Shown piece by piece: positions 14,802 through 46,728 of a DNA stretch of 64,000 nucleotides. The stretch is from Polyangium sp. 15x6 (GTDB taxonomy: Bacteria > Myxococcota_A > Polyangia > Polyangiales > Polyangiaceae), in assembly GCF_029960785.1 (NCBI RefSeq), contig NZ_JASBQE010000006.1:124001-188000 (forward strand), written 5' to 3'. The translations under genes were made by a program, and so were the position numbers. The notes beneath the pieces are model-generated. The model worked only from the letters and a program-made list of their open reading frames with translations. It was not told the origin of the DNA and made no database searches. Each line of letters opens with the position of its first letter. Position 1 is the stretch's first letter.

Positions 14802-17800
14802 TTACTCGCCGCCGATCGCGATGCCCAGCGTCTGCCGCAGCGCGAAGTATTGATCCGACACCGAGAACAGGAGCAGCTCCTTCAGCTTCTCCTGCGGCGG
14901 CAGATCACCCGGCTGCTGCGGCTCGGCCGCGATGATCTTCTTCGCGATCTCGAGGTCGCCGCAGAGCAGGTACCCGGCGCGGTTCGCCGTGATGTCCACG
15001 CACTGCGACCACCGCTTCAGGTTCGCCTTCGCGCCGTCCGCCACGAACTTCTTCACGACCATCCGCAGACCTTCGATCTGCATTGGCTGCATGAACTGGC
15101 GGATCGTCTGGGCCGTCGCCAGCACCTGCTTGTCGATGTCCGGCGGCGAGGGCGCGTCCGGCTGGACGAGCTTGATTGCCGCGAAGAGGAGCACCGTCAG
15201 CTCGGTGACCGTCGGGAACAGCGTCTTGATGTAGTGCTCGCCGCGATACATCGCGAGGTGCTTGCCGATGATGAACGTCAGCTCCTGCGGCGAGAACCCG
15301 GTCAAGACCGTTTGACCAGCAACCGACGAAGGCGGCTCGGCCGGAACGGCGACGAGGGCCCCCGGCACGTCGCTGCGCACGTACAGCGCCGGGCACGGGA
15401 TTCCGAGCACCTGCGAGGCCCAGCCGAACGTACGCGCGAACGTGACGGTCGACGTGGCCGGATCCTGACGGAACCGCGGATCGAGGACCGGCTTCTCCTT
15501 CTTCGCCTCCAGCGTCGCGATCTTCGCCTTGAGCGCCGCGGAGGCGATCATCTCGAAGATCTTGCCGATGTAGAGGTTCTCTTCCTCGTGGAAGAGGTTC
15601 CGGAGCCACTGCTCGTTGTCGAGCCGGTTCTTGACCTGCAACATCCCCTGCGGACGGTAGTCCTCGAAGAAGCGCTGCTCGTCCTCGTCGGCCTTGCGGA
15701 TGAACGCGAGCGCCGCCGCCGTGCACCACGCCGGATCGTACGCCTTCTGCTCCACGTAGAGCCGATAGAGCTCGTGGTAGGAGTCGGCGTTCGTCGCGTC
15801 GATCTTCACGAGCGACTGGTACTCGGCGATCGCGTCCTCCGTGTTCCCGAGGCCCGTGTAGAGCTGCGCCAGGATCTGGTGCTCCTGCACGTCCTCCGGC
15901 TTCAGGCGCGCGGCGATCTTGAACGTCTCGACTGCCGCGTTCACGTCTTCGAGCCGGTCGCGGTAGATGAGGCCGAGCGCGTGCCAGAGGGTGAACTCGA
16001 GGTCGATGTTCCCCTTGCCTGCCACGCGGTGCAGCATCTTCCGATAGGCGCGCTCGAGCTGCTTCCAGTCTCTCCCCGCCGTGAGGATCTTGTTGATGCG
16101 CTCGAAGGCGTCGAGGAAGGCCGGATCGAGGTCCAGCGCGTCGTTGAACAGATCCACCGCGCGCGGGAGATCCTCGAGCTTGTCGCGGTAGATCTGCGCC
16201 ATCGTGAAGAAGTAGCGCGACCTGCGACCGGGCTGCGTCTCCAGGTCCGCGATGCGCTGGAGCGTGTCCACCATGCGCTCCCACTGGCTGACCTTCTGGT
16301 ACAGCGTGAGCATCCGGTGGAGGAGGACGTGGTTCTGGGGCTCCAGATCCATCGCCTCTTCGAGCGCCTCGACGGCCTTCGTCGGGTTCTGATCCTTCTC
16401 CCACGTATCGGCGATCTCACCGAGCAGCTTGAAGCGTTCGGCGCCGTCGATGAGGTTGTCGAGGATCTGGCGCTTGTAGTGCGCGACCTGCTTCCAGTCC
16501 TTGAGCCCGTCGTAGACGGCGACGAGCGCGTCGAGCGTCGGCCGATGGGCCGGCTCCACGCCGAGGGCCTTCTCGAAGTTGTTGATCGCCTGCTTCGCTT
16601 GGCCCTGGTTCTGCTTGATGAGACCAAGCTTGTAGTAGACGTTCGCCCGCGCTTCGGTCTCGGCCTCGTCCGTCGTCCCGAGGACCTTCTGGTAGTTCGT
16701 CAGCGCGCCGGCCCAGTCGCCCAGTCGGAAGCACACGTCGGCGAGACCCTCGATGGTCTCTCGATCCGTCATGTCGATCCCGTAGGCCGCCTGATACGCC
16801 TTGAGCGCCTGCTCGTTCTTCCCGACCGCGACGAGCACCTTGCCGAACGTGTTCTGCAGCCGGTGCTGCTCGGGCTTCTCGCGCTTGCCCGACTTGCGGA
16901 CGAGCATCTCTGCGAGGGGCTCCGCCTTCGTCCACTTCTCGTTGCTCACGTACTCCGCGAGCAGCGGCATCGCCGCGTCCTCGTTGTCACCGTCGCTCTG
17001 GAGCGCGAGCTCGTACGCTTGCACCGCGAGATCGTGCTCACCGATCTGGTGATCGCGCAGCCTGCCGAGCTCCACCAGGAGCTTGGCGCGCTGGCGCGGC
17101 GCCTCGGTGTTCATCTGCTCCTGATCGAGGTACCGGGCAGCGGTATCCCAATCTGCGGAGTCGATCGCGATGACGCGTAGCGCGGCGAGGGTCGGCAGGT
17201 GCGCCGGATCGAGATCGAGCGCCATCTCGAAGCGATCGCGCGCTGCGATCCGATCGCCCTGCTTCTCGTCGAGCTGCTTACCGATCCGGTAATACATCTC
17301 GACGCGCTGCTTGCCGTCCGGGGTCAGGTCGGCGACGCGCGTCATGTAGTCGATGGCGCGCGACGTTTCCTCCTGCTTCTCGTAGAGCTTCGCGAGCGCC
17401 TCGAGCGCCGGGATGTGCTTGTCGTCGAGGTCCGTGATGTTCAGCCACGCGTCGATCGCGCGGTCGAAGTCCTGGACCTCCTCGGCGTACACCTTCGCCG
17501 TCGCCGACCAGAGCTCGATCTTCTTCTGCCTATCGATCGTCGCGTTGATGTGCCGATCGTAGGTGTTGATGAGATCGTGCCACTGCCGCAGCCGGCGGTA
17601 GCAACGCTCCAGCGAATCGAGCGCCGCCTCGTGGTGCGGATCGATGTCCACGACCTGCTCGAGCCTCGCGGCCGCGAGATCCGGCTTGAGGAACTGCTCC
17701 TCCTGGATCTTCGCGATCTTGAGCAGCACGTCGATGCGCTCGCGCTCGGTCGTGACCACGTCGAGCTGCATCTCGAGGACGCCCACGAGATCCGGCCACT

Positions 17801-45795: not shown

Positions 45796-46728
45796 ATGAT
45801 GCGTCGATTCGTGAATAGCCTTTGCGCGTCTCGCCTGCTCCGCAGGGGCATGCTCGCGGCGCTCACGGGATGTGCAGCGCTCGCCATGAGCGCAGGTGCC
45901 GAAGCGCAGGAGATTCAGCTCACGGGTCCCCTCGCGGGGGCCCCGGCCGTACGGAAGTTGCGCCTGCATCGCGCGGGCCGCATCGAAATTACGCCGAGCG
46001 CCTCCTTCACACTGCTCGACGAGTACCAGCGCACGATCATGCCAGGTCTGCGCGTGATGTACCACCCGACCGACTGGCTCGGGGTCGGCCTCTGGGGCGG
46101 CTACGGCATCCAGTCGACGACGTCGCTCACCGACGAGCTGCAGGTGAAGGCGATCGACGAGCGGAACTGCCCTGCGGACTCGAACACGGCGACCGATACG
46201 GCCTGCAAGCTGACGGCCGTCAACCTGACCCGCGGCAACCTCGCCCAGGATCAGCTCGGCCGCATGCAGTGGGTCGCGGCGCCGCAGATCACGGTCGTTC
46301 CGTTCCGCGGCAAGCTGTCGCTGTTCGCGGCGCTCTTCGTCGACACCGACATCAGCTTCTTCGTCGGTCCGGCGGTCATCGGCGTGCAGGAGCGCAAGCC
46401 CTGCGGCAAGGACAACGACGGCAACACTCTCGCCGATACCCCGTGCGCGTCCCAGGGCTCGTTCGAGCTCGAGAGCCGCATCGCCTTCGCGCCCACGTTC
46501 GGCGTCGGCTGGAACTTCTACCCGACGTCGTTCTTCGGCTTCGGCGCGGAGTGGAGGGCGCTGCCCTTCGCGTGGAACACGTCCGGCTTCGACAACGCCG
46601 GCGCGGGCAACGACGAGGCCTTCCCCGACACCGCGGTCAACAACAAAGATCGGCAGTTCCGCATGAACAGCATGATCTCCGTCAACCTGATGTTCTCCCT
46701 CCCCATGAAGGTGAAGAACAGCGACTGA
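45796..46728 (+). CDS. Outer-membrane beta-barrel protein (Glt-associated type), second of the pair
   Basis: 310 aa. The ATG-ATG start has GGGGA upstream; signal peptide near 15-36 (GMLAALTGCAALAMSAGAEA-Q). It shares with its neighbour the start of the barrel (R-x-x-EITPSASFTLLDEYQ against FEITPYFGITMNDQF), the GLGV strand pattern and an aromatic strand-rich C-terminus (VNLMFSLPMKVKNSD). A Cys-containing loop (CPADSNTATDTACKLT) is unique to this copy. The 63-base gap and same strand indicate an operon from the promoter at 44619. Likely a GltA/GltB-type partner barrel. Confidence 0.75.
   Translation: MMRRFVNSLCASRLLRRGMLAALTGCAALAMSAGAEAQEIQLTGPLAGAPAVRKLRLHRAGRIEITPSASFTLLDEYQRTIMPGLRVMYHPTDWLGVGLWGGYGIQSTTSLTDELQVKAIDERNCPADSNTATDTACKLTAVNLTRGNLAQDQLGRMQWVAAPQITVVPFRGKLSLFAALFVDTDISFFVGPAVIGVQERKPCGKDNDGNTLADTPCASQGSFELESRIAFAPTFGVGWNFYPTSFFGFGAEWRALPFAWNTSGFDNAGAGNDEAFPDTAVNNKDRQFRMNSMISVNLMFSLPMKVKNSD

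What the first reader, a model, noticed from the sequence alone, without database searches (positions are those of the whole stretch)
14802..46728. Gliding-type (Glt) envelope complex: homologues of two Myxococcus clusters within ~32 kb
Seen: giant TPR protein, TPR lipoprotein, FHA+TM+AgmX/PglI protein, TPR lipoprotein, large exported TPR protein and exported TPR protein in a row, then two paralogous barrels about 7.5 kb away. Known: in M. xanthus gltD/E/F/G/H/I/J and gltA/B/C/K lie at two distant loci, with AglRQS at a third. Inferred: here most parts sit together in a different order, which may reflect an ancestral or alternative motility/trafficking machine.
Basis: partly seen in the sequence, partly recalled or inferred. 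Interest (0 to 1): 0.85.

Follow-up and report, generated by a model that had tools for sequence, protein, structure and literature searches.

The report
Undivided gliding-machine gene cluster in Polyangium
This stretch of a Polyangium-like soil bacterium carries, side by side, relatives of most genes of the Myxococcus gliding machine; the layout is the usual one in its group, so it is mostly expected, but it points to two unnamed lipoproteins that travel with the machine.

Summary
On the minus strand, 37.3-14.8 kb, lie gltC-gltD-gltE-gltF-gltG-[TPR lipoprotein]-gltI-like giant TPR; two GltA/B-type barrels lie about 7.5 kb away. GltC and GltG match NCBIfam models nearly end to end (E 1.7e-80, 3.8e-90), below curated cut-offs (for GltG, 0 of 140 Myxococcota genomes reach it). 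The order is the M. xanthus order with gltC in front; it is kept in most of 79 related loci where there is room and in other classes. The window genome and three Sorangium genomes each have one full-length GltD, so by that measure this is their only such set. Motor genes are unlinked; GltH and GltJ were not found in the cluster. Best reading: an undivided Glt transducer, most likely for gliding (inferred). New elements: a TPR lipoprotein between gltG and gltI (50 of 55 loci), the interval where M. xanthus has the disputed agmV; and a cysteine-rich lipoprotein divergent from gltC in 23 of 23 genomes of the order, not detected in 117 others.

The parts
35579..37294 (-). gltC homologue (exported TPR protein; ORF opens at 37450, likely ATG at 37294)
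   Evidence: NF033756 E 1.7e-80; start
31634..35479 (-). gltD homologue (large exported TPR protein; ORF opens at 35551)
   Evidence: profile A2, synteny, tree
30147..31622 (-). gltE homologue (TPR lipoprotein)
   Evidence: NF033758 E 9.4e-19; synteny
   Evidence: (NF033764 E 0.006, below cut-off)
27403..29463 (-). gltG homologue (FHA ... AgmX/PglI tail)
   Evidence: NF033760 E 3.8e-90; NF033768 E 1.2e-23
26144..27055 (-). TPR lipoprotein, 303 aa, between gltG and giant TPR; not in the M. xanthus Glt list of PMC3169522 Table 1
   Evidence: 50 of 55 related loci with at least 1500 bases after gltG; 7 of 10 more distant gltC-bearing regions
14802..26075 (-). gltI-like giant TPR protein, 3757 aa, no signal-like start
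   Evidence: position and length; homologue precedes a gltJ in G057; conserved C-terminus
14805..15824 (-). C-terminal region of the giant TPR protein, possible inactive M48-peptidase-like fold
   Evidence: model pLDDT 92.8; M48-type chains among the best matches, Z up to 8.1; HExxH in 0 of 13
37831..38490 (+). cysteine-rich putative lipoprotein, 219 aa, divergent from gltC; found only in the window's order in the sample
44761..45732 (+). gltA/gltB-type outer-membrane barrel 1
   Evidence: TIGR04565 E 2.2e-24, over cut-off; homologue directly upstream of gltC in G057
45796..46728 (+). gltA/gltB-type outer-membrane barrel 2
   Evidence: TIGR04565 E 2.4e-11, under cut-off

Best explanation
This is the undivided glt (gliding transducer) locus of a Polyangium-like myxobacterium, and by GltD count its only complete one. 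Inferred working: an ExbB/ExbD-type proton-driven motor encoded elsewhere couples to inner-membrane GltG, force passes through the periplasmic and lipoprotein chain (GltD, GltE, GltF, the extra TPR lipoprotein) to GltC and the outer-membrane barrels GltA/B, and GltI acts as a very long TPR scaffold. The cysteine-rich lipoprotein is a candidate order-specific outer-membrane or surface part. Shown here: which genes, their order, their conservation and GltD copy number. Inferred from M. xanthus: topology, motor coupling and gliding.
For: Near-full-length profile matches for GltC and GltG; gltF in its expected place. In 79 related loci, where there is room: D after C 70 of 71, E after D 66 of 66, F after E 62 of 64, G after E 59 of 62. 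The giant TPR follows in 6 of 10 more distant gltC-bearing regions. G057 has barrel-C-D-E-F-G-TPR lipoprotein-giant TPR-gltJ in 27 kb and a GltC over the NCBIfam cut-off. GltD tree: the window lies among 18 rows set apart at 100/99 from two paralogous cluster types. One full-length GltD in the window genome and in three Sorangium genomes. ExbB and ExbD genes exist elsewhere in the genome.
Against: The NCBIfam scores for GltC, E, F and G are below the curated cut-offs. M. xanthus sequences could not be fetched, so Glt rather than Nfs or G4/G5 kinship rests on profiles, synteny and published trees. GltH was not seen in the cluster and no GltJ was found at 1e-30. Which of seven ExbB genes is the motor is unresolved. 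In the GltD tree G057, G080 and G129 lie on the other side of the 100/99 branch; all 21 'main' rows together are supported only at 86/72. Three of the ten distant regions lack both TPR lipoprotein and giant TPR. No expression or motility data.
Confidence: 0.7

Rival explanations
1. One dual-purpose machine: the same complex drives gliding and takes part in spore maturation, as a pre-duplication ancestor of Glt and Nfs.
For: One full-length GltD in the window genome and in three Sorangium genomes; the glt/nfs duplication is described as recent, in a terminal branch (PMC3858216 passage read).
Against: No expression or mutant data; partial GltD relatives in the window genome and a second full-length GltD in Minicystis could carry specialised roles.
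Confidence: 0.25
2. A spore-envelope (Nfs-like) machine that does not serve gliding.
For: nfsA-H is one contiguous locus like this one (PMC3858216 passage read); glt and nfs are close paralogues and which process is more recent is stated as unclear (PMC3169522 section 13 read).
Against: Nfs lacks a GltI paralogue (PMC3858216 passage); here a giant gltI-like gene follows, as in 6 of 10 more distant regions. Sorangium myxospores are described as short, fat rods, not the Myxococcus spheres (PMC12288465 passage); that Sorangium glides is recalled.
Confidence: 0.12
3. Generic TPR proteins and barrels that merely resemble Glt parts.
For: GltE, the extra TPR lipoprotein and the giant protein hit many TPR models; all Glt-specific scores are below the curated cut-offs.
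Against: GltC and GltG match specific models nearly end to end, gltF is in place, and the order recurs across classes.
Confidence: 0.02

Closest known systems
M. xanthus Agl-Glt gliding machine (G1 gltD-J, G2 gltK-B-A-C, M1 aglRQS)
   Same: GltC, D, E, F, G and a giant TPR protein with D-E-F-G-I in the same relative order; two GltA/B-type barrels; motor genes unlinked.
   Different: gltC joined to gltD-G; barrels about 7.5 kb away and divergent; no gltH or gltJ found in the cluster; extra TPR lipoprotein between gltG and gltI; cysteine-rich lipoprotein beside gltC.
M. xanthus Nfs sporulation complex (nfsA-H)
   Same: One contiguous locus with homologues of gltA-H in order (from PMC3858216 passage).
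   Different: Nfs has no GltI, J, K paralogues; here a gltI-like gene follows, and the barrels are set apart.
   Same: C-D-E-F-G-TPR lipoprotein order (with extra GltG-like ORFs in G062); giant TPR seen in G062 and G148, the G128 stretch ended before it.
   Different: They carry two further paralogous clusters each; no such cluster was found in the window genome and the three Sorangium genomes have no second full-length GltD.

Membership tests
Glt gliding transducer | GltC, near full length | tested here: met
   NF033756 E 1.7e-80, positions 60-619 of 622, 271.5 bits
Glt gliding transducer | GltG with FHA and AgmX/PglI tail | tested here: met
   NF033760 E 3.8e-90, 3-649 of 650, 303.3 bits
Glt gliding transducer | NCBIfam equivalog cut-offs for GltC, E, G, F | tested here: not met
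   271.5<450, 67.7<225, 303.3<650, 16.6<90; for GltG 0 of 140 and for GltC 1 of 140 Myxococcota genomes pass, so the cut-offs are narrow
Glt gliding transducer | GltD and GltE next to each other | tested here: met
   (E after D 66 of 66)
Glt gliding transducer | GltF between GltE and GltG | tested here: met
   (E 0.006); after gltE in 62 of 64 loci
Glt gliding transducer | two GltA/B barrels | tested here: met
   TIGR04565, one over and one under the cut-off; the model covers the wider barrel family, so which is GltA and which GltB is open
Glt gliding transducer | GltI giant TPR protein | tested here: met
   length, no signal-like start, position and conserved C-terminus; no GltI model among its NCBIfam hits
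Glt gliding transducer | GltJ (zinc ribbon, GYF, AgmX tail) | tested here: inconclusive
   none in the cluster; none at 1e-30 in the genome; zinc-ribbon plus GYF proteins elsewhere without a tail match; a Sorangium protein has zinc ribbon, GYF and a weak tail match
Glt gliding transducer | GltH | tested here: inconclusive
   no such match among the window ORFs scanned, and whether the library holds a GltH model was not checked; not searched genome-wide
Glt gliding transducer | GltK and CglB | not tested
   no accession at hand; genome searches exhausted
Glt gliding transducer | AglRQS motor | tested here: inconclusive
   seven ExbB and 13 ExbD matches in the genome, four ExbB-ExbD-ExbD triplets at three places; which is AglRQS is unresolved
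Glt gliding transducer | needed for gliding | not testable with these tools
   needs mutants
Nfs | contiguous A-H without GltI | tested here: not met
   C to G contiguous, but a gltI-like gene follows and the barrels are apart; M. xanthus Nfs sequences not available

The most novel reading that the evidence does not exclude
The window's order (Polyangium, Sorangium and kin) runs a single, undivided Glt machine that does the work split between Glt and Nfs in Myxococcus, with two parts not in the M. xanthus list: a TPR lipoprotein wedged between GltG and GltI (in the interval where M. xanthus has agmV, dismissed as probable non-genes yet reported in vesicles), and an order-specific cysteine-rich lipoprotein beside gltC that may stand in for surface parts such as GltH, GltK or CglB.
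Probability: 0.25. Interest if true: 0.65.

Novelty: new member of a known kind. Interest (0 to 1): 0.42.

Why it matters
It was stated as unclear whether gliding or spore assembly is the more recent use of this machine (PMC3169522, section 13). A lineage with one undivided set makes that testable with one deletion. The two conserved lipoproteins are concrete candidates for unlisted parts of the force path, and the agmV interval in M. xanthus deserves a second look.

Tried and rejected
Paralogues in the genome: the second gltG on contig C44 (88% DNA identity) has no other window-type glt gene in the 35 kb examined, so I read it as a recent single-gene copy. Partial GltD relatives on C240, C74 and C122 have no window-type glt partners in the 17-20 kb examined around each, apart from weak GltG- or TPR-type hits of 18-28 bits. 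Weaker GltD matches (C28, C136, C231 and C242:209695-210411; 20-51 bits) were not followed.

M. xanthus sequences: not reached. The one genome-contig scan kept the best 80 (79 distinct) of 487 relatives: Polyangium, Sorangium, Minicystis, Byssovorax, Labilithrix, and MAGs titled Polyangiaceae, Polyangia, Myxococcales, Myxococcota or Deltaproteobacteria. In the 57 held genomes of the class of G062 no GltJ passes the cut-off.

Motor: C209 and C164 first looked like AglRQS (ExbB-ExbD-ExbD), but C209 is followed by a TonB-dependent receptor and C164 is preceded by a TonB-like gene; ExbBs lying near glt-type clusters in other genomes group with C219 (100/99) or with C247/C228 (80/81, weak). I leave the motor open.

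Cysteine-rich lipoprotein: no NCBIfam match and no Pfam match over its cut-off, no PDB match at E 0.001 (the model is moderate, pLDDT 76.8). A lipoprotein near the G057 barrel looked similar by eye, but the profile gave no match there.

Giant C-terminus: Foldseek gave nothing at E 0.001; VIA-align's top rows mix M48 peptidases (Z up to 8.1) with TPR proteins that match only the first 60 residues. Suggestive only.

Counts by hand: gltC within 10 kb and on the same strand as gltG in at least 55 of the 62 genomes that have a GltG at 1e-80 (G140); 4 have them on different contigs (G094, G120, G137, G145), 3 had no listed GltC row (G135, G167, G170). One search leaves out, step by step, loci without room at the contig or flank end and loci whose previous gene was not found.

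Correction: a notebook entry says 14 invariant cysteines; the right number is 11.
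Full report
What is there. Minus strand, 37.3 to 14.8 kb: gltC, gltD, gltE, gltF, gltG, a TPR lipoprotein and a 3757-aa TPR protein. GltC and GltG match NCBIfam models nearly end to end, GltE mainly in its second half, GltF weakly but over its length. All four are below the curated cut-offs; for GltG 0 of 140 and for GltC 1 of 140 Myxococcota genomes reach them. GltD has no GltD model among its hits; a profile from 19 relatives and a tree support it. Two barrels on the plus strand hit TIGR04565. Between gltC and the barrels lie a cysteine-rich putative lipoprotein, YraN, a possible HAMP protein (below the Pfam cut-off), a HEAT-repeat protein, a 696-aa protein and FtsY.

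Whose genome. GltC is 98% identical to that of Polyangium sp. y55x31 and 97% to that of P. fumosum, so I call the organism Polyangium-like; the assembly is 13.38 Mb in 275 contigs. The tools name no taxon for it; 'Polyangiales' for its order is my label from the named relatives.

How usual it is. In 79 loci from genome contigs (the best 80 of 487 relatives, hence biased towards the window's order), where there is room: gltD follows gltC in 70 of 71, gltE follows gltD in 66 of 66, gltF follows gltE in 62 of 64, gltG follows gltE in 59 of 62; barrel 1 lies within 10 kb upstream of gltC in 52 of 57, on the opposite strand in 51 of 57. The TPR lipoprotein follows gltG in 50 of 55 with at least 1500 bases of room (52 of 57 at 1200, 29 of 31 at 1900). 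Of ten more distant regions that carry gltC, seven have the TPR lipoprotein (G062, G148, G119, G140, G127, G081, G057) and six of these the giant TPR (not G081); three have neither (G080, G129, G060). Irregular ones: no gltF was detected in G119, G062 and G140 have extra GltG-like ORFs, and G060 shows only gltC and gltD. In G080 and G129 two barrels stand directly before gltC on the same strand.

The bridge. G057 carries barrel, C, D, E, F, G, TPR lipoprotein, giant TPR and a gltJ split over two ORFs (zinc ribbon, GYF-like stretch by eye, tail) in 27 kb, and its GltC passes the NCBIfam cut-off. This makes the window's giant protein the gltI counterpart by position, length and homology that reaches the C-terminus (best segment 27.8% over 1974 aa). 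No gltJ-type hit follows the giant gene in the window or in six downstream regions of relatives (So ce26, GT47, Minicystis, G038, G143, G156).

Copy number. The GltD profile finds one full-length match in the window genome and in each of three Sorangium cellulosum genomes; Minicystis has two; G062, G128 and G148 have three near-full-length matches each, and G062 and G128 a further weak one in an ORF of about 1100 aa. The extra G062, G128 and G148 copies sit in clusters of two other kinds, one with a GltJ-like protein in all three genomes, one with ExbB and ExbD in two of the three. The GltD tree separates these from the window's type; G057, G080 and G129 fall on their side of the 100/99 branch, and the 21 'main' rows as a whole have 86/72. 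In the window genome the stronger of the other GltD-like genes (C240, C74, C122) are partial and without glt neighbours of the window type, and gltG has one recent copy elsewhere. GltC was found once at 1e-15 in the window genome, with 8 of 15 candidates scored.

Motor. Seven ExbB and 13 ExbD matches lie elsewhere in the genome, none on the window's contig. Four ExbB-ExbD-ExbD triplets lie at three places. A small tree does not settle which serves Glt.

Two unnamed parts. (a) The TPR lipoprotein lies between gltG and gltI. In M. xanthus the same interval holds gltH and MXAN_4864/4865 (agmV), called probably not actual genes by Luciano et al. (PMC3169522, section 6 read), though AgmV (MXAN_4865) was listed in vesicle proteomics (PMC4158809, passages read). 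Whether they correspond is untested. (b) The cysteine-rich protein has 11 invariant cysteines in 44 aligned rows and lies divergent from gltC in 67 of 67 loci where a near-complete relative was taken; a BLAST hit exists in 77 of 79 loci. In a phylum sample the profile matches 23 of 140 genomes at 1e-5: all 23 of the window's order (own included) and none of the 117 others; in each of the 23 the best match lies beside gltC on the other strand (compared by hand). Nine of the 23, from other families of the order, match weakly (E 1e-12 to 1e-17, in pieces), and the profile was built from this order, so distant relatives elsewhere could be missed. Housekeeping neighbours such as YraN are also conserved (71 of 79), so a shared neighbourhood alone could explain the linkage.

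Giant protein's end. The last 340 residues model well (pLDDT 92.8) and resemble M48 peptidases (Z up to 8.1), without the HExxH motif in 13 of 13 rows. Middling scores; a lead only.

Literature. PMC3169522: abstract, sections 6, 7, 11, 12, 13 and passages. Passages only: PMC3858216, PMC4488436, PMC4158809, PMC12288465, PMC8436480. Not held: the CglB paper. Supplements were not available, so Figure S1 of PMC3169522, which covers Sorangium and Haliangium, was not seen. That paper already names Sorangium, Haliangium and Plesiocystis among carriers of glt homologues (section 7), so the presence of such genes is not new. The listings (20 of 43 shown; 14 of 14; 20 of 32; 20 of 60; 13 of 13; 14 of 14) show no title or abstract opening that describes this layout or the two lipoproteins; that is not proof of absence.

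Verdict. A well conserved glt locus whose undivided layout is probably old, with two worthwhile loose ends.

Noticed in passing
window 14442-14741: A roughly 300-base, partly self-complementary element after the giant TPR gene has further full or partial copies at 71-91% identity on four other contigs of the genome (C44, C164, C247, C228): a dispersed repeat.
   Followed up: partly
L013 17193-19424 (contig C44:37192-39423): A second gltG, 88% DNA identity, without other window-type glt genes in the 35 kb examined: recent single-gene duplication.
   Followed up: partly
L186, L187, L188 (contigs C240, C74, C122): Partial GltD-like proteins of 362-494 aa without glt neighbours of the window type; Minicystis has two similar ones and a lone full-length second GltD (L189 to L192).
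   Followed up: partly
L018 and L019 (contigs C247 and C228): Two nearly identical ExbB genes with ExbD partners, grouping weakly (80/81) with ExbBs near glt-type clusters in two other families.
   Followed up: no
L020 (contig C219): Two divergent ExbB-ExbD-ExbD triplets side by side, grouping (100/99) with ExbBs of the second paralogous glt cluster of G062 and G128.
   Followed up: partly
window 40764-42854: A 696-aa protein with a carboxypeptidase regulatory-like domain, with a relative in 58 of 79 related loci.
   Followed up: no
window 10206-14420: Large Ser/Thr-kinase-type protein on the plus strand, convergent with the giant TPR gene.
   Followed up: no
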